A DNA stretch of 64,000 bases from Oribacterium sinus. Lineage in GTDB: Bacteria; Bacillota; Clostridia; Lachnospirales; Lachnospiraceae. Within the stretch, counting starts at the first letter, position 1; the number at the start of each line of letters is the position of its first letter. Under the pieces are notes generated by a model, which saw only the letters and a list, made by a program, of their open reading frames with translations, was not told the DNA's origin and did no database searches. Of the stretch, positions 45,698 through 64,000 are shown piece after piece. The position numbers were made by a program, and so were the translations under genes. The stretch is from assembly GCF_014202695.1 (NCBI RefSeq), contig NZ_JACHHH010000007.1, positions 62,001 through 126,000 on the forward strand, read 5' to 3'.

Positions 45698-45836
45698 TAA
45701 TGCAGTATGGTCTGTAATTGGGGCACGCTCCCGCTAACCTCGCCTTCGTAGCAGTACTAACTTCAAGCTTCGCTTTGCTCGCTTTCAGTAAGTACTGACG
45801 GGCTCAAATTGCCCCATTACAGACCATACTGCATTA
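45698..45836. repeat. Conserved-core hairpin element, copy A
   Basis: The 21-bp outer arm 45698-45718 pairs perfectly with 45816-45836, continued after one bulged T by GGGGCA (45720-45725)/TGCCCC (45810-45815). Inside is the core shared with the copies at 51220 and 54636: GGGGCACGCTCCCGCTAACC plus TCGCC, and on the 3' side ACGGGCTCA(A/G)ATTGCCCC. An inner CAGTACT/AGTACTG stem follows. The outer arms differ between copies but stay complementary. Located between dnaJ and the chemoreceptor gene. Confidence 0.85.
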
Positions 45837-46109
45837 TTCGCTTTAACTTATGAATTTTAACAGTCCTTCACTTCGCCGGATTTCAGTAAGTGTCGTTGGC
45901 CTTATATTACCCCATTACAGACCATATTGCATTATTCGCTTCTCTTTTGAATTTCTACAGGCTTTCACATTGCCGGTTTTCAGTAAGTGCCGTTGGCCTC
46001 AGATTGCCCCTATTACAGACCATACTGCATTATTCGCTTCTCTTATGAATTTTTACAGGACTTTACTTCGCCGTTTTTCTGCAGGTGCGGTTAGACTCAG
46101 ACTCCTCCT
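45816..46109. repeat. Three degenerate 98-bp tandem repeats of the hairpin element's 3' half
   Basis: ATTACAGACCATA(C/T)TGCATT recurs at 45816, 45914 and 46012, an exact 98-bp period, each followed by ATTCGCTT and, later in the unit, TTTCAGTAAGTG-like and (G/A)CCCC motifs matching the 3' side of copy A. Divergence rises toward the dnaJ end. The rest of the 45544-46185 gap shows no gene. Confidence 0.8.
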
Positions 46110-51219: not shown

Positions 51220-51360
51220 TCGCTTTTCCGGTATAGGGCTTACTCCGGGGCACGCTCCCGCTAACCTCGCCTCGTATGGGTTCTAAGCTTTTATAGGACA
51301 AAAGCTAAGAACCCACGGGCTCAGATTGCCCCCGTCATAAGCCCTATACCGAGAAAGCGA
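51220..51360. repeat. Conserved-core hairpin element, copy B
   Basis: Outer arms TCGCTTT..GGTATAGGGCTTA (51220-51242) and TAAGCCCTATACC..AAAGCGA (51338-51360) pair over 20 of 23 positions. GGGGCA (51247-51252) pairs with TGCCCC. Core GGGGCACGCTCCCGCTAACC + TCGCC is shared with copies A and C. The inner arm is a different 16-bp stem (TGGGTTCTAAGCTTTT with AAAAGCTAAGAACCCA, one mismatch). It lies between hrcA and mtaB; the rest of that gap (51112-51219, 51361-51534) shows no gene. Confidence 0.85.
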
Positions 51361-53395: not shown

Positions 53396-54604
53396 ATGCA
53401 ATACCAAGCATTTTTGATTAAATATGCAGAAATCGGCACCAAGGGAAAAAACCGTTATGTCTTTGAGGACGCCCTGGTTCATGACATTCGGATGAAATTA
53501 AAGCGGGCCACCGGAAGCTATTCCGTAAGCCGGGAACGGGGAAGAATCTATGTAAATGTAAAGTCCGAGGACTACGATTATGAGGAGTGCATTGATGCCC
53601 TTCGCCATGTGTTCGGTATTGCCGGCATTGCGCCAATGGTGCAGGTGCCTTTAAGTCCGGACTTCTCCGTTTTGGAAAATGCAGTTCTTTCCTACTTTAA
53701 AGAAGCCTATGGCGACAGCAATGTTTCCTTCAAGGTAGAAAGTCGAAGAGCCGAAAAGTCCTATCCCATGACCTCTCCGGAGCTGGATCAGGAACTTGGC
53801 CACAGCATTTTGGAGGCCTTCCCCAATGCTCGCGTGGATGTGCATAAGCCGGATGTGAAGCTTCGAGTGGAAATCCGCCAGTATATGAACATTTACGGAA
53901 AGATTATTCCCGGACTGGGCGGAATGCCCCTGGGTACAAACGGAAAGGCCATGTTGCTGCTTTCCGGAGGAATTGACTCCCCCGTTGCGGGCTACAAGGT
54001 GGCAAAGCGCGGTGCCTTACTGGAAGCTACCTACTTCCATGCCCCACCCTACACCAGCGAAAGAGCAAAAATCAAGGTTATGGACCTGGCGAAGCAGGTT
54101 TCCACCTATACCGGACCCATACTGCTTCACGTGGTAAATTTCACGGATATTCAGCTGGCTATTTATGAGCACTGCCCCCACGAGGAGCTGACCATTATTA
54201 TGCGCCGCTATATGATGCGGATTGCTGAGGCATTGGCCTATAAAAATAACTGTATCGGCTTAATTACCGGAGAATCCATCGGACAGGTAGCTTCCCAGAC
54301 TCTGCAAAGTCTGGTCTGCACCAATGAGGTCTGCACTCTTCCGGTTTACCGCCCCTTGATTGCCTTCGATAAGCAGGAAATCGTAGATGTGGCTCAGGAA
54401 ATCGGAACCTACGAAACCTCCATTGAACCCTACGAGGATTGCTGTACCATCTTCGTGGCAAAGCACCCCGTTACCAAGCCTATCCCGGAGAAGATTCGGA
54501 AATCAGAGGAAAAACTGGCGCCTATCGTAGCGGAAATGGTGGAGAAGGCCATCAATGAGGCAGAGGCGATTTTGATGCGGAAGGATAAGGCTGCTGAAAT
54601 TTAA
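53396..54604 (+). CDS. thiI: tRNA 4-thiouridine synthase (ThiI, short form)
   Basis: 402 residues. An N-terminal ferredoxin-like and THUMP region (about 60-170) binds tRNA; the PP-loop SGGIDSPVAGYKVAKRG (about 189) activates uridine 8 with ATP. YFHAPPYTSERAKIKV, TGESIGQVASQT and EDCCTIFVAKHP are typical. It lacks the C-terminal rhodanese domain of enteric ThiI, so sulfur would come another way, as in other short forms. The ATG follows AGAAGGAG. Last plus-strand gene before the AT-rich island. Confidence 0.95.
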   Translation: MQYQAFLIKYAEIGTKGKNRYVFEDALVHDIRMKLKRATGSYSVSRERGRIYVNVKSEDYDYEECIDALRHVFGIAGIAPMVQVPLSPDFSVLENAVLSYFKEAYGDSNVSFKVESRRAEKSYPMTSPELDQELGHSILEAFPNARVDVHKPDVKLRVEIRQYMNIYGKIIPGLGGMPLGTNGKAMLLLSGGIDSPVAGYKVAKRGALLEATYFHAPPYTSERAKIKVMDLAKQVSTYTGPILLHVVNFTDIQLAIYEHCPHEELTIIMRRYMMRIAEALAYKNNCIGLITGESIGQVASQTLQSLVCTNEVCTLPVYRPLIAFDKQEIVDVAQEIGTYETSIEPYEDCCTIFVAKHPVTKPIPEKIRKSEEKLAPIVAEMVEKAINEAEAILMRKDKAAEI

Positions 54605-54635
54605 AAAAGGATGTAGGAAAAGTCATGTTTAAGGA

Positions 54636-54781
54636 TTCCTTCCGATATAGGTCTAAAATTGGGGCACGCTCTCGCTAACCTCGCCTTCGTAACAGTACTA
54701 ACTTCAAGCTTCGCCTCGCTCGCTTTCAGTAAGTACTGACGGGCTCAGATTACCCCCATTTTAGACCTATACCGGAAGGAA
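54636..54781. repeat. Conserved-core hairpin element, copy C
   Basis: Outer arm 54636-54659 (TTCCTTCCGATATAGGTC...) pairs with 54758-54781 over 23 of 24 positions, then GGGGCA with TACCCC. The core GGGGCACGCTC(T)CGCTAACC + TCGCC and the inner CAGTACT/AGTACTG stem are nearly identical to copy A, whereas the outer arms are not. It lies 31 bp after thiI, at the edge of the AT-rich island. The rest of the gap to 54910 shows nothing recognisable. Confidence 0.85.
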
Positions 54782-54910
54782 TGAACTGTCTTTTTCTACA
54801 TTTTTACTGCTTCTCCAATTCTTGTTCTAACAACGAACAACTAATTTAAGCTTCAAATAAAATGTTCACATTACTTTTTAGAATATAGAATAAGTTCAAT
54901 TTTGGAATTG

Positions 54911-56578
54911 CTATACGTTTAACAAATATGAATATGGAGATTGAGCCACTTGATTAAAATTTCCAACAGCTACTATTCTTGAATTCTCCATTACTACTAT
55001 TTGATCGTATTGTTTCAGAATTTGTGGATTGCTCTTATGACTGATAGTAACAATGGTTCCATTATACTTGAGAAACATATTTTCCAAAAAGTATGTATTC
55101 TTTGTATCCAATGCACTCATCCCCTCATCCACAAATATAATCTCTGGTTCTCTAATAAAAACTCTTGCAATTGCTATTTTTTGTTTTTCTCCTCCTGATA
55201 AATTATTTCCATTATCTGATAAAACTGTTTTTACTCCATTAGGTAATTTTCTAATTAGTTCCTTTAAATTTACCAATTCAATAACTTTATCCAATTCTTT
55301 CTTCTCAACATCATGTCTTAAACATATATTAAATTCTAATGTATCTTGAAATATATAAGGATTCTGTTGTACAAAATTAATTTTCTTCCTCAGCGATATT
55401 TCATCTATATCAGAAAGTTCTTCGCCATCTATTTCTATTTTTCCAGAATACGCTTTATTAAGCTTTGTTAACACCTTTAATAAAGTGCTTTTACCACTCC
55501 CACTACTTCCTAGTAATACATACTTTTTACCTCTTTCTAATAATAAATCAAGGTTTTCTATTGCAAAACTTTGAGAACCTGGATAACAATAACTCAGGTT
55601 TTTTATCTCTATAGTTTTAATTTCTTCTTGTAATACTTTCTCTTTATCTAATGTTTTCTCATAAGTTACTTTTTCCAGTATCCCGAGTATTTTTTGTTCT
55701 ATAGGATAAATTGAATTCATTTCGGCAATGTAAAATGGTCCCTGATTTATAGGCAAAATAACATAGTTCATAACTTGCATGATTGCCAAAGCAGTTCCTA
55801 TTGAAAAATAGCCTTTATGTGATAAAAATGCAGCCAAAACAACATTTATAGACAAGATCAAAAATCCATTAGATGTTACCAATAACTGTATACAATCATC
55901 ATAAAAATTAGATCGTAACCTGCTTTCCTCAACTTTTTTATTTGAATCATTTAGCTTTATTAAATATTCGTTTTCAAGCATAAAAAGTTTGATAGTTTCA
56001 ATTCCGTATAATAGTTCTTTTAGCATACGAAAAAACTGTGCAGTAGCTTCTATATATACATTTTTTAATTCAGAACTTTTATTTACAAATAAACTTGGCA
56101 AATAAATACTAATTAATCCACAAGCCACAACAGACATTGCAATATATATATTGACATATATCAAATAGCCGAGCGAAAGTACAAATGAAGACATTGTTCT
56201 AACTAACATAAACAGATTGATTAATTTTTTTTCATATATCATATCTACATCTTTATTTACAGTAGATATGAACTCCATATTATCATAGTCTGATTTATTT
56301 ATAATATTACCTATTAAATCATTCTTAATGTCTTTACATATATAAGACGCTATCAAAAGAGATAGTCTCTGAAATGATGCATATAAGGCTATATTTGACA
56401 AAATAAAAAGAACTATTACAACAATAATTCTCAAAAATCCTGAATTGTTATTTGTGATTGCAGTATCGATAATTTCTTTTAATATTATGCCTTTCCCAAC
56501 ATCCATTATTCCCAATAAAATACTAAGGAAAAAACTCAGGAATATAAGATATTTGTATCTTAGAATATAGTTTGCCAT
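54911..56578 (-). CDS. ABC exporter, fused membrane and ATPase domains
   Basis: 555 residues. Six membrane helices (about 1-310) of the type-IV exporter fold, then an ATPase domain: Walker A LGSSGSGKSTLL near 358, signature LSGGEKQKIAIARV, Walker B IIFVDEGMSALD, H-loop TISHKS. There is no C39 peptidase domain, so it would not itself cut a leader peptide. It follows the radical SAM gene by 34 bp and is the last gene of the unit, so export of the modified peptide is inferred. Base use is clearly AT-richer than flanking housekeeping genes. Confidence 0.88.
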   Translation of the reverse strand: MANYILRYKYLIFLSFFLSILLGIMDVGKGIILKEIIDTAITNNNSGFLRIIVVIVLFILSNIALYASFQRLSLLIASYICKDIKNDLIGNIINKSDYDNMEFISTVNKDVDMIYEKKLINLFMLVRTMSSFVLSLGYLIYVNIYIAMSVVACGLISIYLPSLFVNKSSELKNVYIEATAQFFRMLKELLYGIETIKLFMLENEYLIKLNDSNKKVEESRLRSNFYDDCIQLLVTSNGFLILSINVVLAAFLSHKGYFSIGTALAIMQVMNYVILPINQGPFYIAEMNSIYPIEQKILGILEKVTYEKTLDKEKVLQEEIKTIEIKNLSYCYPGSQSFAIENLDLLLERGKKYVLLGSSGSGKSTLLKVLTKLNKAYSGKIEIDGEELSDIDEISLRKKINFVQQNPYIFQDTLEFNICLRHDVEKKELDKVIELVNLKELIRKLPNGVKTVLSDNGNNLSGGEKQKIAIARVFIREPEIIFVDEGMSALDTKNTYFLENMFLKYNGTIVTISHKSNPQILKQYDQIVVMENSRIVAVGNFNQVAQSPYSYLLNV

Positions 56579-56612
56579 TTTTAATCCTTTTTACCTTGTC
56601 ATACAAGCCATC

Positions 56613-57911
56613 TTAAATATATTGTGATATTATGTAAGTCTTTAATTTATCCACAAGAGTTGCATCAAAAATATCCCTCATACAATCCTTTTCATTTTCT
56701 CCTTTTGCCCAGGTACATCCTCCATAGCATATCGGAGCATACTTACAAAAGTTAATGCATTTTGCCTCTTCCAAATGATAATCATACCATTTCTTATTAT
56801 CTATAATTAACTTTCCATCGGTACTTATTTTGCCATGAACATCACTATATAATAGCCCAGGGCAAGCATATATGTTGAGTTGTTCATCCACTGTATATCC
56901 ATTCGCTAATTTACCAATACATAGCCCACTAATTTCTTTAAATACCTTAATCCCATTTTCAATTAAGTAATAATTCAACTTAACAATTTCTTTTGCCAAT
57001 TCAATATCATTGTCTCTCTCGTCATTACCATCTAAAATTATCTCTCCTTGGGTTCCAAATATCTCATGGAATTTTATTGATGTAATAGCTTGTGTAAGAT
57101 TTTTATCAATTAAATAATCTATCAATTCTTTAGATTTGTTCACTGTTTCTTTGTTTACATTTATTCTCAAACATATCGTACTCAAAATATCTGAAGTTTT
57201 ATGCTTTTTAATTAATTTTAGACTTGAAATAATCTTGTCAAAACTACCTTCGCCATTGGGATATACACGGAATGAATCATTAATCTCCTTAATTCCATCT
57301 AGCGTAATTTGGATATTGTCTATATTATCTAAGTAGAATTTAATATTACTTTCATTAAATAAAGTACCATTGGTAATCAATACACACTGAATCACTAATT
57401 CTGGAAAAATATCTTCTAGACGTCTCAAATCTGTAATTATTTGCTGACACATAGAATCATTAAACATTGGTTCTCCACCAAAAAGACTGACGGCAAATAA
57501 TTTAGTATTATATTTTTTTATTTCATTTTTAAAATATTCAATAACCACTTTCCAATTGCTTTCAGTCATATACTTCTTGCAATTAAGTTCTTTCCTTATA
57601 TCCTGATAACAATATGTACAATTTAAATTACAAGCTGATGTTGTCGAGATAAATGCCGCCATTTTGGTTTTATCAAACTTTAACGAAGATATATTGCTCT
57701 TTAATCTTGAAACCTCAAATTCATGGCTATCAACTATAATGCCATTTTCATATAAGCTAGTTTCTTCACCTTTTGATAAACGAATTTCCTGATTTCCATT
57801 CAAAAAATCGACTAAATCGTGATCACAAGAAATCAAACATTGAGATGCCAAATTGAAAAGATACTCTTTCCCTTCAATATCTAATAATAAATTATACTTT
57901 GAAGCTACCAT
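56613..57911 (-). CDS. Radical SAM/SPASM peptide maturase
   Basis: 432 residues. C-x-x-x-C-x-x-C for the SAM-binding [4Fe-4S] cluster is at Cys94, Cys98, Cys101 (CNLNCTYCYQD), followed by LFGGEPMFN (glycine-rich SAM site). The C-terminal SPASM region (about 335-410) has many cysteines: SGLCIGKL, IYACPGLLYS, CINFCKYAPICYGGCTWAKGE and DCM, able to hold auxiliary clusters. The first 80 residues look like a small peptide-recognition domain. Such enzymes cross-link or epimerise ribosomal peptides. Strong SD AAGGAG ahead of the ATG. AT-rich. Confidence 0.88.
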   Translation of the reverse strand: MVASKYNLLLDIEGKEYLFNLASQCLISCDHDLVDFLNGNQEIRLSKGEETSLYENGIIVDSHEFEVSRLKSNISSLKFDKTKMAAFISTTSACNLNCTYCYQDIRKELNCKKYMTESNWKVVIEYFKNEIKKYNTKLFAVSLFGGEPMFNDSMCQQIITDLRRLEDIFPELVIQCVLITNGTLFNESNIKFYLDNIDNIQITLDGIKEINDSFRVYPNGEGSFDKIISSLKLIKKHKTSDILSTICLRINVNKETVNKSKELIDYLIDKNLTQAITSIKFHEIFGTQGEIILDGNDERDNDIELAKEIVKLNYYLIENGIKVFKEISGLCIGKLANGYTVDEQLNIYACPGLLYSDVHGKISTDGKLIIDNKKWYDYHLEEAKCINFCKYAPICYGGCTWAKGENEKDCMRDIFDATLVDKLKTYIISQYI

Positions 57912-58203
57912 TGTTTCTCCTTAATTAATATCTTTTTAGCAACTTTTTCTACCGTATACAACTTTCAGAAATCACGTTATAGGCGGAACATAAAGGACGA
58001 AATTTGTTCTTCCAAAAGGCAATGCCATCTCTTTTAAATATTACCCCCGACAATATAATCTCTTACAGTACTACTATAAATCTCTATTTTTATAAGCTCT
58101 CAAGTAAATTGAATTCTAAACTAATCCAACGTGGTATTTATATAAAAACAAATACAACATGAAAGTAGTTAATCGACAATTTCTTTTTCAAAAATCTTGA
58201 ATA
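57912..58203 (-). other. Gap between candidate precursor and radical SAM gene
   Basis: About 290 bp, AT-rich. It holds a possible promoter on the minus strand (TTGAGA at 58103-58098, 19 bp, TATAGT at 58078-58073) and two tiny frames (14 and 18 codons; the latter, 57972-58028, begins MALPFGRTN) lacking good ribosome binding sites. Nothing else is recognisable. Confidence 0.3.
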
Positions 58204-58296
58204 TTATCTAATTCTTGTAATGCAGTTCCCAAAAATTCCGCAAAAATTAACTTCTGAAAATGTTAAGTAGCCTCTTTCTAAAATCTTGAATCTCAT
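58204..58296 (-). CDS. Candidate RiPP precursor peptide, possibly frameshifted
   Basis: A 30-codon frame starts at an ATG with AAAGGAG 8 bp ahead, 60 bp after the permease gene. As read it gives MRFKILERGYLTFSEVN and then FCGIFGNCITRIR with two cysteines. Dropping one T from each of two five-T runs (58242-58246 and 58190-58194) instead gives a 41-residue peptide whose second half is FAEFLGTALQELDNIQDF then EKEIVD, ending at 58169. Its position before the maturase makes it the best precursor candidate. Which frame is real cannot be decided here. Confidence 0.4.
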   Translation of the reverse strand: MRFKILERGYLTFSEVNFCGIFGNCITRIR

Positions 58297-58355
58297 ATCA
58301 TTTTCTCCTTTCTTTAATGTTAACTGTATTTACTCAAGAGCTTATAAACAATTTT

Positions 58356-60719
58356 TTACTCCCCTCTATTAATAATATAGTTAGGAGAATACTTACTCTG
58401 CCTACACACATAGAGTATGGACAGGAAGTAAGATAATAGAATAAGGATTATTGCGTAACAAAGTATATATCCATTAGGAAGGTTAAACCGCAAATCATAA
58501 ATCCCCATTCCTTGCAACATAAGGATCGAAATTCTATTGGTAAATAGCAAGGATAATAAATATCCTATACAGGAAGCCATTGTCAAAATCGGCAGGATAC
58601 TCATAGAAATCTGCCTTGCTATCTGATACGTCGTGAAGCCTATTGCTCTCATCACAGCAAAATCACTTTCGTTATTTAAAACTACTGTCTTTACCAGTAA
58701 AATCACAGTAGTTAGTGTAATAAACATACTTACGAAAAGTACCCAGAGGAGAATCGCCTTTACATTGGCTATAACAGAAGCAAATTGGCTGTTAAATAAT
58801 TCTTTGAAATTTTCGATGTAAGTAATTTCATCCCCCATTTGAGATTGAATCTTTGATATTGCGACCTCTATGTCCCTGTTATTCTTTAGATACAGATACA
58901 TCGATTCCCAACTGGCATCCGGTTCTATTTTTAGGATACCGTCATAGGTAAAGAAAATATCAAGTCCTCCGGTATAGCTGCCTTGTGTCAGTCCGGTTAC
59001 TACATATTCTTCCTCCGGAGCTTGTTCTTGATAATCATTTCTGATCGAAATCACATCTCCTATTCCTTTTTTTAAACTCTTGGAGAGATTAACCGAGATG
59101 GCGATTTCATTGTCATAGAAAGGATACCTTCCCTTATATAAGCCTATCTTCTCCAATTTCTCATAGTCATCATAAACCGTTACTCTTCCGCTTACATTGT
59201 TATCACATAGGATTTCTCCCCCTCCGGGACCTATGCATTTTATAACGGCTTTGGTGTTATCCATTTCGGATATTGTCTGATATAGCTTCTGAATGTCTGC
59301 TTCTTTCTCGGGCTTTAAAACAATATCAAATTTCTCCATACCACTGATTTGCGATAAACCGTCTTCTTTTTGAACAATATTGGAAAATAAAGTGATAAAA
59401 AATGAAGAGGATAATACTGCTAAGGCAACAATCAAGCAGATGGCTATATTTTGTTTCTTTCTACAAATCAATAAATAAATAGCTGATAAAAAGTCCAGGG
59501 ATAAAGGAATTTTCCCAAAAAATGAATGACTGATTCCACCATTATAATTACCCCTTTGTCCCCTTATGGCTGCTACCGGAGTGATTTTCTTTACGGTAGC
59601 CGTTGCTTGAAATGCAAATAGGAATACTATAATTAGATTCACCGATAGGATTTCTAATCCTCTCATCACATGAAAAGAATTTACCCACTTCATACCGCTT
59701 TCTGCCGTTATGGAGGGAATGAAAGTGGATGCCAGTACAGCAGATAATAAAATCCCTAGAACGCTTCCCATAAACCCTAAGAAAATATATTGGAATACAA
59801 AGGATAGTCGAATTTCCCTATCACTAATGCCTAGGGCTTTCATTACTCCAATTGTTTTAAAATCCTTATAAAAACTGTCTTTAATTCTAAAATACATTAC
59901 CAGACAAACCACTATCAGAGTTACCATAGAAAAGAAAAGTATCGCAATACTGTAAACGTGTAATGTGGAGTGCATAGAATACCGAGCGGAAGCAATATCC
60001 GTATAGGTTCCATAAGGCGCCTCTTTGATGAGTGGGATAAAGTTTTGTCTTAAACCCTTATCTTCAGACTTAAGCAACAATAAAGCACTGCGGCTCTCAT
60101 TTCCAAGAGAATTTTCCAATTCCGAGAAAGATTTCTCCGGTACATCAAAGGCCATAACGCCTCGATTACCATATAAGATATCCTCAGTAAATCCGGCAAT
60201 CACAAAGGTCTTATACTCATCAAGGTACTTTATAGATAAATTTTCTCCTAATTGAAAACCAAATAAAGTTTTGCACAGATAGGGAACAAATATTGCATTC
60301 TCCGGCTGGGTCTCCATTTTTTCCACAAGATTGACAGTAGATAAAAGATTGTCTCTATCAAAATTCCGTATAATCCACGAACCCTGTAATTCTTCCTTAT
60401 TTTCTACAGAGATTGCTGTTTTTAAGAAAATCAAAGTATCTTCTGTTTCATAAGCGGTATTGATTTCTGATTTTTGAATGAAGCTCTCGATATCCCTTTT
60501 TTTACTTTCTAAGTATTCTCTGGGAAATATGGCGCTATAATCTGCACTGTTTGTTGCTTCATAAACAGTCTCAAATAAAGCCGAAAAACTATCTTCTATA
60601 GAAAAAGATATCCCTATCAAAAAAGAAGACACCGCAATCAAAAAAACAAAGACAAAAGATCCATACACATTTTTTTTAATTTTAGAAAGGTTAAAAAGTA
60701 ATATTCTTTTTATCATCAT
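58356..60719 (-). CDS. MacB/BceB-type ABC permease
   Basis: 787 residues from the ATG at 60719, which shares one base with the stop of the ATPase gene (TAATG). Two FtsX-type permease modules: a membrane helix near the start, a large outer domain, three helices (about 265-390), then a second helix/outer domain/three-helix set ending near 780. This is the layout of transporters that move or sense peptides and lipids, including bacteriocin-resistance pumps. With the ATPase it forms a two-gene ABC system next to a two-component system, as in Bce-type peptide sensing and detoxification, so self-immunity or antimicrobial-peptide resistance is inferred. Confidence 0.85.
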   Translation of the reverse strand: MMIKRILLFNLSKIKKNVYGSFVFVFLIAVSSFLIGISFSIEDSFSALFETVYEATNSADYSAIFPREYLESKKRDIESFIQKSEINTAYETEDTLIFLKTAISVENKEELQGSWIIRNFDRDNLLSTVNLVEKMETQPENAIFVPYLCKTLFGFQLGENLSIKYLDEYKTFVIAGFTEDILYGNRGVMAFDVPEKSFSELENSLGNESRSALLLLKSEDKGLRQNFIPLIKEAPYGTYTDIASARYSMHSTLHVYSIAILFFSMVTLIVVCLVMYFRIKDSFYKDFKTIGVMKALGISDREIRLSFVFQYIFLGFMGSVLGILLSAVLASTFIPSITAESGMKWVNSFHVMRGLEILSVNLIIVFLFAFQATATVKKITPVAAIRGQRGNYNGGISHSFFGKIPLSLDFLSAIYLLICRKKQNIAICLIVALAVLSSSFFITLFSNIVQKEDGLSQISGMEKFDIVLKPEKEADIQKLYQTISEMDNTKAVIKCIGPGGGEILCDNNVSGRVTVYDDYEKLEKIGLYKGRYPFYDNEIAISVNLSKSLKKGIGDVISIRNDYQEQAPEEEYVVTGLTQGSYTGGLDIFFTYDGILKIEPDASWESMYLYLKNNRDIEVAISKIQSQMGDEITYIENFKELFNSQFASVIANVKAILLWVLFVSMFITLTTVILLVKTVVLNNESDFAVMRAIGFTTYQIARQISMSILPILTMASCIGYLLSLLFTNRISILMLQGMGIYDLRFNLPNGYILCYAIILILLSYFLSILYVCRQSKYSPNYIINRGE

Positions 60720-61492
60720 TACCAACCCATTTCCTTTAGAAAACCGTCCAATTGTATATTTCTTTCCTTATCATGATCTACTGTATATTGTCCCAGATTA
60801 CACTCCCCGCAAATCACTCCATCCTTTAAATACAGTATGCGATTCCCTCTTAAAGCTGCATTAAAGTCATGGGTAACCATTAAGACACTTCTACCCTGTT
60901 GATGAATATTGCTTAATAAATCAAGAACTCTGCACCCTGATTCGGAGTTCAGTGCTCCTGTAGGTTCATCTGCAAACAATATATCCGGTTCATTGATTTC
61001 AGCACGGACTACTGCAACTCTTTGTGCTTCACCTCCCGAGATTTCTGCGGGACTTTTATCCCAATTTTTTTCTTCAATATGAACCATTGAGAGAAGCTGC
61101 TTTGCTTTCTGCATAACTTCAGCATTATTTTTATTTCTTAACAGACCGCTTAGCACAACGTTATCCAGAACCGTAAGATTATGAATCAAATTAATCTGTT
61201 GGAATACAAATCCACAGTGATTTCTTCTAAAATCAGATAATGCATTGTTAGATTTACTTGAAATCTCTTCGTCTCTAAAGAAGACTCTTCCCAAAGATGG
61301 ATTATCCATTCCCGAAAGCATATAGAGAAGAGTTGACTTACCGGAGCCTGATGCTCCCATAACCACCGTAAAATCCCTCTCATAAATTTCTAAATCTATA
61401 TTCTTTAAGATGTGTTCACTATGGTTTTTCATTGAAAAGCTTTTACAGAGCTTTTCTGTTCTAATGATTATATTATTATCATGACTCACCAT
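60719..61492 (-). CDS. ABC transporter ATPase partnering the FtsX-like permease
   Basis: 257 residues. Walker A GASGSGKSTLLYML, Q-loop VFQQINLIHNLTVLDNV, signature ISGGEAQRVAVVRAE, Walker B DILFADEPTGALNSESG and H-loop MVTHDFNAAL are all intact, in the order typical of the MacB/LolD/BceA group. AAAGGAAC precedes the ATG. Upstream lie phased TTAAG half-sites that probably bind the response regulator encoded at 63019. Confidence 0.93.
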   Translation of the reverse strand: MVSHDNNIIIRTEKLCKSFSMKNHSEHILKNIDLEIYERDFTVVMGASGSGKSTLLYMLSGMDNPSLGRVFFRDEEISSKSNNALSDFRRNHCGFVFQQINLIHNLTVLDNVVLSGLLRNKNNAEVMQKAKQLLSMVHIEEKNWDKSPAEISGGEAQRVAVVRAEINEPDILFADEPTGALNSESGCRVLDLLSNIHQQGRSVLMVTHDFNAALRGNRILYLKDGVICGECNLGQYTVDHDKERNIQLDGFLKEMGW

Positions 61493-61579
61493 TTTGCGTT
61501 CCTTTCATGATTCATTTCTTGTTGCACGTCCCTTTTTCTATATTGATTTTATCATTCTAAATCTTAGCAGTCTTTGCCT

Positions 61580-61619
61580 CTTCCTTAACAATTCTTAACT
61601 GACTTACCATGATTCTTAA
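61580..61619 (-). promoter_or_regulatory. Candidate response-regulator binding site (phased half-sites)
   Basis: On the minus strand TTAAGAAT (61619-61612), TTAAGAAT (61598-61591) and TTAAGGAAG (61588-61580) are direct repeats whose TTAA cores are 21 and 10 bp apart, i.e. on one face of the helix, as OmpR-type regulators prefer. They lie 88-127 bp before the ATPase gene; possible -10 sequences (TAGAAT, TAAAAT) follow. Confidence 0.5.
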
Positions 61620-61703
61620 CTTTATTATTCTCCTGAATTTCTTTATCCCATTTTCTAAAATGCTATTGAAAATGCAGGCTTTGCATGCACTACTCTTTAC
61701 GAA

Positions 61704-61749
61704 CAAAAAAACACTACAGGAAAGTCTTTCTTTGAAAGTTTCCTGTAGT
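61704..61749 (-). terminator. Terminator of the sensor kinase gene
   Basis: ACTACAGGAAA (61713-61723) pairs perfectly with TTTCCTGTAGT (61739-61749); GTTTTTTTG follows on the minus strand. It separates the two-component genes from the ABC genes. Confidence 0.9.
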
Positions 61750-61762
61750 ATCTTCCATCTAA

Positions 61763-63022
61763 TTACGCCAATGGTAAATCTATTGTTACACAAAATTGAT
61801 TCTCTATTTTATCAAAACGAATTCTTCCTCCGATTTTATCTATAATCTTTTTGCAAATATATAAGCCCAATCCGGAACCGGCAAAATCCTTTGCTTTTTT
61901 TCCCCGATAAAATCTTTGATCCACAAGATGAATTTCTTCCTCTTCAATGCTGTCTCCAAAATCGCTAACAGAGATTCGTAAGTACTGATTGAAAAAACAG
62001 GAAGATACAGCAATCTCCGTATTTGCATATTTATAAGAATTATTGATTATGTTATCGAAAACCTGCAATAGCCGATTCTTGTCTATTTTTATAATGCAGG
62101 AAGGAATGGATATTTCTCTAATATAGTTTTTGTAATCTGCACTACGAATAATATCTGTTACAACTTCACTACATTCTTCTCTTACAATAACTTCCATTTC
62201 CTCCAACTCATCTAATGTAGACTGCAATAAATTGGAAGCCAGAAGATTGATTTGCTCCGCTTTATCCATAATGATCATCATCTTTTTTCTTTTAGATGCG
62301 TTATCCTCTTGTAACGCAAGAAGTTCTGTCGTTGCTTTTATGGAAGCAATCGGCGTTTTTATATCATGACTTAACGAGGCTATAAGCTCTTTTCTCTTTT
62401 TTAGAGCATTTTGCTCATTGATTTTGGCGTTTAAAAGCTTCTCTCTCATAATATCAAAGCTATTGGCAAATGTACTAAGAGCATTGTTACTATGAATACT
62501 GAGAGGCATCTCAAGATTTCCATCTGAAATTCTTTCTGCAAAAACTTTTAATTGGTCTAATGGTTGAAGTATGGTTCTCCATATTTCAAATACCAGGATT
62601 GCAATAATGATAAAAAACAAGCTGTTAATCAGTAAATAGATATTTCTCATACGAATACTGTACGAAACGTAACGTTCATAATCTTCATTTAAAATAATAA
62701 GCTTTCCCACTGCTTTCTCGTTTTTTACAATATCTATAATCGTATCTTTGTTTTTTATAGAGTCTTCCAATCCACGTCTCTTCATGAGCATGGATTCGTA
62801 AACAATATCTCCCTGCTCATTAATAACATAGAATGAAAGAGTGCTTTTCCTATCTCGAAAAGCACTGTCTTCCCAGTGCCCCCAGTTTTTTTCCACTGAT
62901 TTTCTGATATAATTTACCTCAGCAAAATCGTTAGGCTTCTTCATTATCGGTAAGCCTAAAAATACCAGGGTAAGCCAGGAAAGGATCAAGATTAGTAGAA
63001 AATAGAGATACCCTTTTTTCAT
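61763..63022 (-). CDS. Sensor histidine kinase
   Basis: 419 residues from the ATG at 63022, which overlaps the regulator's stop by 4 bp (ATGA) and has AGAAGGAC ahead. Two membrane helices (about 6-27 and 128-147) flank an outer domain of about 100 residues; HAMP linker; phospho-acceptor His219 in SLSHDIKTPIAS; N-box NRLLQVFDNIINNSYKYA; G-box GSGLGLYICKKII. It is translationally coupled to the regulator. The outer domain is larger than in the BceS group, which has almost none, so it may sense its ligand directly. Confidence 0.93.
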   Translation of the reverse strand: MKKGYLYFLLILILSWLTLVFLGLPIMKKPNDFAEVNYIRKSVEKNWGHWEDSAFRDRKSTLSFYVINEQGDIVYESMLMKRRGLEDSIKNKDTIIDIVKNEKAVGKLIILNEDYERYVSYSIRMRNIYLLINSLFFIIIAILVFEIWRTILQPLDQLKVFAERISDGNLEMPLSIHSNNALSTFANSFDIMREKLLNAKINEQNALKKRKELIASLSHDIKTPIASIKATTELLALQEDNASKRKKMMIIMDKAEQINLLASNLLQSTLDELEEMEVIVREECSEVVTDIIRSADYKNYIREISIPSCIIKIDKNRLLQVFDNIINNSYKYANTEIAVSSCFFNQYLRISVSDFGDSIEEEEIHLVDQRFYRGKKAKDFAGSGLGLYICKKIIDKIGGRIRFDKIENQFCVTIDLPLA

Positions 63023-63705
63023 TGTCCTTCTCCTAATGTCAACATGTACCCTATCCCCCAAACTGTTCTTAAAACTTGCGGTTCGTTAGGATCTATCTCT
63101 ATTTTTTCTCTTAATCTGCGAATATGGACATTTAGTGTATTATCTCCGGTGATACTATCCTGCCATACATTTTGGAATAATTCCTCTTTCGATATGGTTC
63201 TGCCTTGATTTTTCAGGAGATAGAAAAGTAACTTTTTTTCCATTCCTTTCAGCTTTATTCTTTCCCCGGCGTTATATAATTCTTCTTTTTTTAAATCAGC
63301 CTCACATCTTCCCACGCTCACGCCGTCTAATTTATCTTCCGGATAATATCGTTTCAAGAAAACCTGTATTTTTGCAAGCAAATAGCTGAGAGAATAAGGT
63401 TTTTGTATATAATCATCCCCTCCAATATGTAAGGCTAAAATCATATCATCCGTACTGCTACGTGCACTGATGAAAATAATGGGCACATCAGTCATTTGTC
63501 GAATTTTTTTACAAAGTTCAAACCCGGATTCATCACCCAAATTAATATCCAGCAAAATTAACTTTACCTTATCTCGAGAAAGAACTTCAAAACATCCCTC
63601 ATCAGACTCTGCCGTAACGGTACTGATACCGAACAAATTCAAATATTCACTTGTGGCTTCCAGCAAACTTTTCTCATCATCAATGATTAGACAATCATAA
63701 ATCAT
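63019..63705 (-). CDS. OmpR/PhoB-family response regulator
   Basis: 228 residues. Receiver domain (1-120) with acidic Asp9/Asp10, phospho-acceptor Asp53 (LLLDINLGDESG), conserved Ser/Thr and Lys (FISARSS, DDYIQKPYSL), then a winged-helix DNA-binding domain (about 130-226: NVHIRRLREKIEIDPNEPQ, VWGIGYML). Expected to bind direct repeats; the TTAAG sites at 61580-61619 are the candidate target. First gene of the two-component pair. Confidence 0.94.
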   Translation of the reverse strand: MIYDCLIIDDEKSLLEATSEYLNLFGISTVTAESDEGCFEVLSRDKVKLILLDINLGDESGFELCKKIRQMTDVPIIFISARSSTDDMILALHIGGDDYIQKPYSLSYLLAKIQVFLKRYYPEDKLDGVSVGRCEADLKKEELYNAGERIKLKGMEKKLLFYLLKNQGRTISKEELFQNVWQDSITGDNTLNVHIRRLREKIEIDPNEPQVLRTVWGIGYMLTLGEGQ

Positions 63706-63812
63706 AAAAACAGCTCTACCTCACTTTCTGCTTCTCCCTGTATGCGTTAATAAATAGATGGTAGATTTGTATATTCTTTACTTTGTTTAAATAAAACTAC
63801 TGACTCTTTCTC

Positions 63813-64000
63813 TTAAAATGACTTTTTCCTACATATAAAGGCGTGCCACTCCCCTTCCTGCAGCTCTTCCAGAATTTCCCATTCCTTCACTGCTTTCAGG
63901 GTCTCTCTGACTTCCTCCGCCTTTTCTTCCAAAATTCCGGAGGCAATAAAGATTCCTCCTTCTTCCAAAAACTTTGGTACTTCCGGTGCCAAGGCAATGA
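63813..64000 (-). CDS. prmA: Ribosomal protein L11 methyltransferase, C-terminal part
   Basis: An open minus-strand frame enters at the window edge and ends at a TAA at 63813-63815, giving the last 62 codons. ALAPEVPKFLEEGGIFIASGILEEKAEEV and the ending EGEWHAFICRK match the end of PrmA, which trimethylates ribosomal protein L11 using SAM. In many Firmicutes prmA follows dnaJ; here about 16 kb and the AT-rich island lie between them. Confidence 0.8.
   Translation of the reverse strand, partial: IALAPEVPKFLEEGGIFIASGILEEKAEEVRETLKAVKEWEILEELQEGEWHAFICRKKSF

What the first reader, a model, noticed from the sequence alone, without database searches (positions are those of the whole stretch)
54911..63705. 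RiPP-type island with its own ABC self-protection and two-component control
On one strand and in order: response regulator, sensor kinase, ABC ATPase, FtsX-like permease, a short peptide frame, a radical SAM/SPASM maturase and an ABC exporter without peptidase domain. The maturase has both the C-x-x-x-C-x-x-C site and a cysteine-rich SPASM tail. This is the gene set of a ribosomally made, radically modified peptide with sensing and immunity. The precursor does not resemble a class I can name, so the product may be undescribed.
Basis: partly seen in the sequence, partly recalled or inferred. Interest (0 to 1): 0.8.

Follow-up and report, generated by a model that had tools for sequence, protein, structure and literature searches.

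The report
Small radical-SAM peptide cluster, unnamed family
A bacterium, probably of the Lachnospiraceae, carries a foreign-looking gene island that probably makes, exports and perhaps senses a small chemically modified peptide; the peptide matches no family in the library searched, but this general kind of gene cluster is well known.

Summary
In detail: seven genes lie on the minus strand in the order given, in a low-G+C block between prmA and thiI. In one congener those two genes are adjacent; in another a single unrelated gene separates them. The peptide frame can now be named: 58204-58296, 30 aa, with a clear ribosome site. It is real by comparison: the closest maturase found (36% identity, another family of the class) has directly upstream a peptide sharing LExGxxxFSExNFC (score 61; 0 of 5,000 shuffles). 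The maturase has CX3CX2C and seven SPASM-type cysteines; its best structural match is a thioether-forming enzyme, and it lies below the cut-offs of all 25 NCBIfam models listed (of 66). So: a new, rare family of a known kind. 'Own immunity and control' is half supported: the regulator-kinase-ATPase-FtsX cassette occurs without a maturase in 14 of 14 inspected loci, differs in G+C, and is absent near the three nearest maturase relatives. Yet a strong terminator follows the kinase, and only weak candidates follow until the exporter, so co-expression is plausible. A 21-nt inverted repeat bracketing the precursor is unexplained.

The parts
63019..63705 (-). OmpR-type response regulator, 228 aa
   Evidence: Pfam Response_reg and Trans_reg_C
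61763..63061 (-). sensor histidine kinase; likely start ATG at 63022; two predicted membrane helices with about 103 aa outside between them
   Evidence: Pfam HisKA, HATPase_c; hydropathy; start
61708..61754 (-). terminator-like hairpin plus T run right after the kinase stop
   Evidence: inverted repeat, sequence, fold -24.2 kcal/mol, z -5.5, 0 of 200 shuffles as good; 14 of 14 pairs
60719..61492 (-). ABC ATPase, LolD/MacB type, 257 aa
   Evidence: Pfam ABC_tran; NCBIfam LolD is the best hit, below cut-off
58356..60725 (-). FtsX-type permease, 789 aa, 8 predicted membrane helices, two large outside domains
   Evidence: Pfam FtsX, two stretches; MacB_PCD just below its cut-off; hydropathy
58328..58348 (-). 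left arm of a 21-nt inverted repeat bracketing the precursor gene
   Evidence: 19 of 21 pairs; 0 such pairs in 100 shuffles of the island; arm found only twice in the genome held
58204..58296 (-). RiPP precursor peptide, 30 aa, MRFKILERGYLTFSEVNFCGIFGNCITRIR, ATG start, ribosome site AAAGGAG, two Cys (C19, C25)
   Evidence: homologous to the peptide upstream of the closest maturase
58089..58109 (-). right arm of the 21-nt inverted repeat
56613..57911 (-). radical SAM/SPASM peptide maturase, 432 aa, with a possible leader-binding N-terminal domain
54911..56578 (-). ABC exporter with fused membrane and ATPase domains, 555 aa, no peptidase domain found

Best explanation
A horizontally acquired island that makes a small radical-SAM-modified peptide. 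The 30-aa precursor is bound through its leader (shared motif LExGxxxFSExNFC) by the maturase's N-terminal domain; the maturase's Fe-S clusters drive a radical cross-link at the cysteine(s) of the C-terminal part, most likely a Cys thioether (inferred from the nearest solved structure, not shown). The fused ABC exporter carries the product out; leader removal is by a protease outside the island, or does not occur. The upstream two-component system senses a peptide or envelope signal and switches on the ATPase-FtsX pair; because precursor, maturase and exporter follow that pair with only weak terminator candidates, the peptide genes are probably in the same regulated transcript, so that product and protection rise together. 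Shown: gene content, precursor homology, catalytic motifs, island position. Inferred: the chemistry, export, sensing, protection and co-transcription.
For: Domains and motifs. Precursor: the closest maturase found (G1315, 36%, E 5.3e-78) has a homologous peptide ending 83 nt upstream; local score 61, 0 of 5,000 shuffles reach it; in the window the precursor is the best of 829 small frames against that peptide (66, next 47). The maturase model resembles 5why/5wgg best (the enzyme name CteB is recalled), and strands and helices at 7-75 would fit a leader-binding domain (low confidence). One locus: prmA and thiI are about 380 nt apart in G1114 and hold one DUF4143/AAA gene in G178. Low G+C. The hairpin after the kinase is the only perfect terminator-like stem found from there to the exporter's end.
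Against: No cross-link, product or transcript was observed. No inspected relative keeps all seven genes together: the cassette lacks a maturase in 14 of 14 loci and the three nearest maturase relatives lack the cassette in the stretches held. Peptide genes and cassette differ in G+C. Only the first Cys of the precursor is shared with its G1315 relative, so a two-Cys ring with this spacing cannot be the family's common product. The exporter type is not conserved: G1315 and, with a weaker hit, G236 have a two-gene ABC-2-type transporter instead. The first terminator scan found 3 sites against 3.8 in shuffles and missed the kinase hairpin; the laxer one lists 11 imperfect candidates between 61689 and 55547, one of them (57995-58013, 6 of 7 pairs) between precursor and maturase.
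Confidence: 0.68

Rival explanations
1. Two independent modules side by side: a general peptide-resistance cassette (two-component system plus FtsX transporter, acting on peptides of other organisms) and, next to it, an unrelated three-gene RiPP cluster that landed at the same spot.
For: Cassette without a maturase in 14 of 14 inspected loci; different G+C; nearest maturase relatives lack the cassette in the stretches held.
Against: Both occupy one site that is empty in a congener; a gap of only 59 nt from permease to precursor; no terminator-like site in that gap.
Confidence: 0.4
2. The peptide is a signal rather than an antibiotic: exported, sensed by the kinase, and read as a density cue, as proposed for some clostridial ranthipeptides (recalled; not read here).
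For: A kinase with an outside stretch of about 103 aa lies in the island.
Against: Transporters of the MacB/BceB architecture in Gram-positives are tied to detoxification or sensing of antibiotics (PMC5985334, passages); no set of target genes is known.
Confidence: 0.15
3. The 30-aa frame is chance and the maturase acts on another substrate, such as the frame at 57949-58053 or a distant protein.
For: A second small frame with two Cys lies between precursor and maturase.
Against: The 30-aa frame has a homologue at the same place beside the closest maturase, whereas the second frame's local score to it is reached by 858 of 3,000 shuffles.
Confidence: 0.05

Closest known systems
CteB (thioether-forming maturase, PDB 5wgg/5why; the name is recalled, the entries' titles come from the calls)
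   Same: Best match by sequence (5wgg, E 5.9e-20) and by model (5why, E 9.9e-14, TM about 0.47); radical SAM plus SPASM.
   Different: About 20% identity; the SCIFF maturase model scores 73.7 bits against a cut-off of 425; the precursor has two Cys and does not match the SCIFF peptide model.
CefB (Cys-every-fifth maturase), geopeptide maturase, PapB
   Same: Three of the four best NCBIfam models for the maturase (155.7, 145.8, 100.1 bits).
   Different: All far below their cut-offs 600, 400, 340; the precursor has two Cys six apart, no Cys-every-fifth pattern, and no CX3D repeat of the PapB substrate (that repeat is recalled).
Bce-type peptide sensing and resistance modules
   Same: Two-component system beside an ATPase and an FtsX/MacB-type permease.
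   Different: BceB has ten helices and one outside domain (PMC5985334, passages); here eight are predicted with two outside domains, closer to the YbbP layout named there, and the kinase has an outside stretch of about 103 aa.
yydFGHIJ (epipeptide YydF) of Bacillus subtilis
   Same: Precursor, radical SAM enzyme and an ABC pair postulated as self-protection in one locus (PMC7026026, passages).
   Different: A radical SAM epimerase and a putative protease, no two-component genes in the operon as described in those passages; there the ABC pair turned out to be at most a minor resistance factor, a caution for this case.

Membership tests
Radical SAM/SPASM RiPP maturase | CX3CX2C motif and SPASM-type cysteine-rich tail | tested here: met
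   C94/98/101; C331/350/385/389/395/399/410; the three motif Cys and five of the seven tail Cys are invariant in the window enzyme and three relatives
Radical SAM/SPASM RiPP maturase | adjacent small precursor gene conserved in relatives | tested here: met
   met in the closest relative, G1315; in G236 the contig starts 100 nt before the maturase; the Dielma peptide is not significantly alike (1,491 of 5,000 shuffles)
Radical SAM/SPASM RiPP maturase | leader-binding (RRE) N-terminal domain | tested here: inconclusive
   strands 7-29 and helices 31-75 in the model would fit, but confidence there is 42-64; no Pfam hit
Ranthipeptide | Cys thioether to a non-alpha carbon | not testable with these tools
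   needs product analysis
Ranthipeptide | match to a named ranthipeptide model (SCIFF peptide TIGR03973, PapB NF047865) | tested here: not met
   no peptide model matched; PapB 100.1 bits against 340
Sactipeptide | Cys thioether to an alpha carbon | not testable with these tools
   needs product analysis; RumMC model 51.3 bits against 720
CefA/CefB system | maturase above the NF038107 cut-off; Cys at every fifth position | tested here: not met
   155.7 against 600 bits; two Cys six apart
Bce-type resistance module | permease with one large outside domain between helices 7 and 8; kinase without an outside sensor domain (the latter recalled, supported by passages) | tested here: not met
   by hydropathy, outside stretches 44-258 and 448-657; kinase stretch 40-142
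Bce-type resistance module | protects against, and is induced by, a peptide | not testable with these tools
   needs assay

The most novel reading that the evidence does not exclude
The precursor gene sits on a 218-bp segment between 21-nt inverted repeats that a site-specific recombinase can flip, so that a cell population switches synthesis of this undescribed peptide on and off while keeping its protection genes on.
Probability: 0.06. Interest if true: 0.65.

Novelty: new member of a known kind. Interest (0 to 1): 0.36.

Why it matters
It adds a small precursor-maturase family (LExGxxxFSExNFC) that the NCBIfam models searched do not name, with two sequences from different bacterial families that can be tested directly in vitro. 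If the peptide induces the adjacent cassette, it would be a compact case of a resistance module joined to a peptide-making cluster.

Tried and rejected
Second small frame 57949-58053: looks like a second precursor by eye, but the local score is reached by 858 of 3,000 shuffles (the global score is reached by only 10 of 3,000, which I do not count as enough alone). Dielma fastidiosa peptide as a homologue of the window's: not significant (1,491 of 5,000; against the G1315 peptide 115 of 5,000). A peptide beside a more distant maturase (L044) scores 42 against the precursor, just above the best of the other 8,822 small frames of 20 loci (38; the single 161 is the window's own copy in L192; nested starts counted apart): a lead, not proof. 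Promoter scan: 42 sites against 45.6 in shuffles, so uninformative. Rfam: no match at E <= 1 in 54000-64000. Scans that found no relative: genome contigs and viral contigs with the single maturase; tblastn of the precursor on plasmids. The plasmid and phage tblastn searches of the maturases listed only matches of about 32% identity or less (best 10 or 20 rows shown). The precursor had no match in G236, whose contig starts 100 nt before the maturase, and the tool warns that an empty answer there shows little. Literature: from titles and abstract starts I recognised nothing on this family, and searches returned no paper; this is not proof that it is unpublished. Rows left out: L046 (maturase frame of 306 aa), the third maturase-like frame of L038 and Dielma were not in the tree; L054 was not in the alignments.

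Full report
What is there. The block 54911-63705 holds seven genes on the minus strand: response regulator, sensor kinase, ABC ATPase, FtsX permease, 30-aa peptide, radical SAM/SPASM enzyme and fused ABC exporter. The exporter has no C39 peptidase among its Pfam hits. The peptide MRFKILERGYLTFSEVNFCGIFGNCITRIR (58204-58296) follows AAAGGAG at a usual distance. The flanks are thiI and prmA.

Where it sits. Among 17 genomes searched for the genus, own included, only the own genome has a full-length maturase match; the matches elsewhere cover only part of the enzyme, best E 1.5e-19, and 2 of 17 have none at 1e-10. I inspected the thiI neighbourhood of 5 of the 15 other genomes with a thiI match. 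In G1114 prmA and thiI are neighbours with about 380 nt between; in G178 one DUF4143/AAA gene lies between them; in the other three no prmA was called in the stretch, so they say nothing. The G+C of the seven island genes is 27.5-36.6%, against 45.1% (sd 2.4%, lowest 39.4%) for 22 called frames of 200 aa or more elsewhere in the window. This fits acquired DNA. The bacterium is probably a Lachnospiraceae: the maturase contig of its family-mate G236 has the same length and the same maturase as a record titled Lachnospiraceae bacterium SIG336; the genus is unnamed.

Relatives of the maturase. Samples of genomes gave matches in 11 of 397 (family, E <= 1e-20), 5 of 392 (order, 1e-25), 5 of 398 (phylum, 1e-25) and 4 of 391 (class, 1e-25), own genome counted each time and samples overlapping. 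The nearest is G1315 (36%, E 5.3e-78), then G236 (31%) and Dielma fastidiosa (31%). The scan kept 80 of 94 relatives, most of them with partial matches. A tree of 21 maturases, made before G1315 was found and without Dielma, joins the window's enzyme with G236's (support 99/97), on long branches. Of 83 genomes around G1315, G1315 included, no other has a close copy (next E 7.2e-41). In these samples the family is therefore rare.

The precursor is real. In G1315 the frame directly upstream of the maturase encodes MKKELFMVLEEGHIEFSESNFCVFCNPVQITH. Local score 61 against the window's peptide; 0 of 5,000 shuffles reach it. It is the best of 347 small frames in that locus, and among 8,823 small frames from 20 other loci the best, apart from the window's own copy, is 38 (nested starts counted apart). 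Searched the other way, the window's peptide is first of 829 small frames, 66 against 47. Shared letters run LExGxxxFSExNFC; of the cysteines only the first is common. Neither peptide matches an NCBIfam model.

The enzyme. CX3CX2C and seven tail cysteines would fit three Fe-S clusters. The four best NCBIfam models are CefB, geopeptide maturase, TIGR04463 and PapB; the 25 listed of 66 are all under their cut-offs. phmmer against solved structures puts 5wgg first, Foldseek on the model puts 5why and 5wgg in the first three rows; I know these as CteB, a thioether-forming enzyme (name recalled). The model is modest (mean pLDDT 60.8, three sequences). A thioether is thus the most likely bond, but this is inference.

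The control and protection genes. Relatives of the permease were found in 38 of 299 family genomes, own included. I inspected 14 loci from 11 of these genomes: the 11 best places after the own one and three further ones. In all 14 a regulator, kinase and ATPase like the window's lie with the permease, and in none of the stretches held (12-18 kb; two of them cut by a contig end) does blastp at 1e-3 find a match to the maturase, the precursor or, over more than 300 aa, the exporter. The stretches held around the three nearest maturase relatives (15 kb each for G236 and Dielma, 19.5 kb for G1315) show no regulator, kinase or permease match, only general ABC ATPases; G236's is cut on one side. The cassette is 33.9-36.6% G+C, the peptide genes 27.5-29%. 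So two modules of probably different origin have come together. Against pure coincidence: a terminator-like hairpin lies right after the kinase (fold z -5.5, 0 of 200 shuffles as good; 14 of 14 pairs), while from there to the exporter's end a lax scan finds only imperfect candidates, one of them in the precursor-maturase gap (57995-58013) and none in the 59-nt permease-precursor gap. The stricter scan had missed the kinase hairpin, its loop limit being 8. The layout of permease (two outside domains) and kinase (outside stretch of about 103 aa) is not that of Bce modules (PMC5985334 and PMC10314905, passages read).

Unexplained. A 21-nt inverted repeat (19 of 21) at 58089-58109 and 58328-58348 brackets the precursor. 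No pair of that quality turned up in 100 shuffles of the island, but the real window holds 7 such pairs in all, two of them in the block shuffled, so such pairs are not unique here. The arm occurs in the genome held only at these two places (up to 3 mismatches). It could form a long RNA stem (the whole region folds no better than chance, z -1.5), be the ends of a small mobile element, or bound an invertible segment. In G1315 and Dielma a close hairpin lies at the precursor's end instead. I did not look for a recombinase genome-wide and could not see other isolates.

Verdict. It is a new, rare family of a known kind.

Noticed in passing
58089-58109 and 58328-58348: 21-nt inverted repeat bracketing the precursor gene, its arm found nowhere else in the genome held; function unknown.
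   Followed up: partly
58183-58213 and 58272-58302: Direct repeat, 81% over 31 nt: the DNA of the precursor start (MRFKILERG) seems repeated in degenerate form right after its stop (IIFKIFEKE), perhaps a decayed second copy; not tested against chance.
   Followed up: partly
57949-58053 (-): Second small frame with two Cys between precursor and maturase, TTG start; local likeness to the precursor not significant.
   Followed up: yes
54635-54782 and 51220-51360: Palindromic elements with about 100-nt loops sharing a core like TTCCGGTATAGG; 15 matches to a 14-nt core at up to 3 mismatches in the window against 4.1 expected, so perhaps a dispersed repeat family.
   Followed up: partly
45783-46101: Tandem array of a 98-bp unit, 3.3 copies, with an inverted copy of part of the unit just beside it (45698-45718).
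   Followed up: no
L044:6823-6936 (-): Small peptide MRIVREAQAVITSLNEVNICNAGGSCIINAVAGCGGK beside a distant maturase resembles the precursor around EVNxC...GxCI; a second version lies nearby.
   Followed up: partly
L042:1589-4196 (+): Seven short frames after a distant maturase, six of them listed with two or more Cys, several with similar starts (MLYLIR, MEFLI): looks like a multi-precursor cluster.
   Followed up: no
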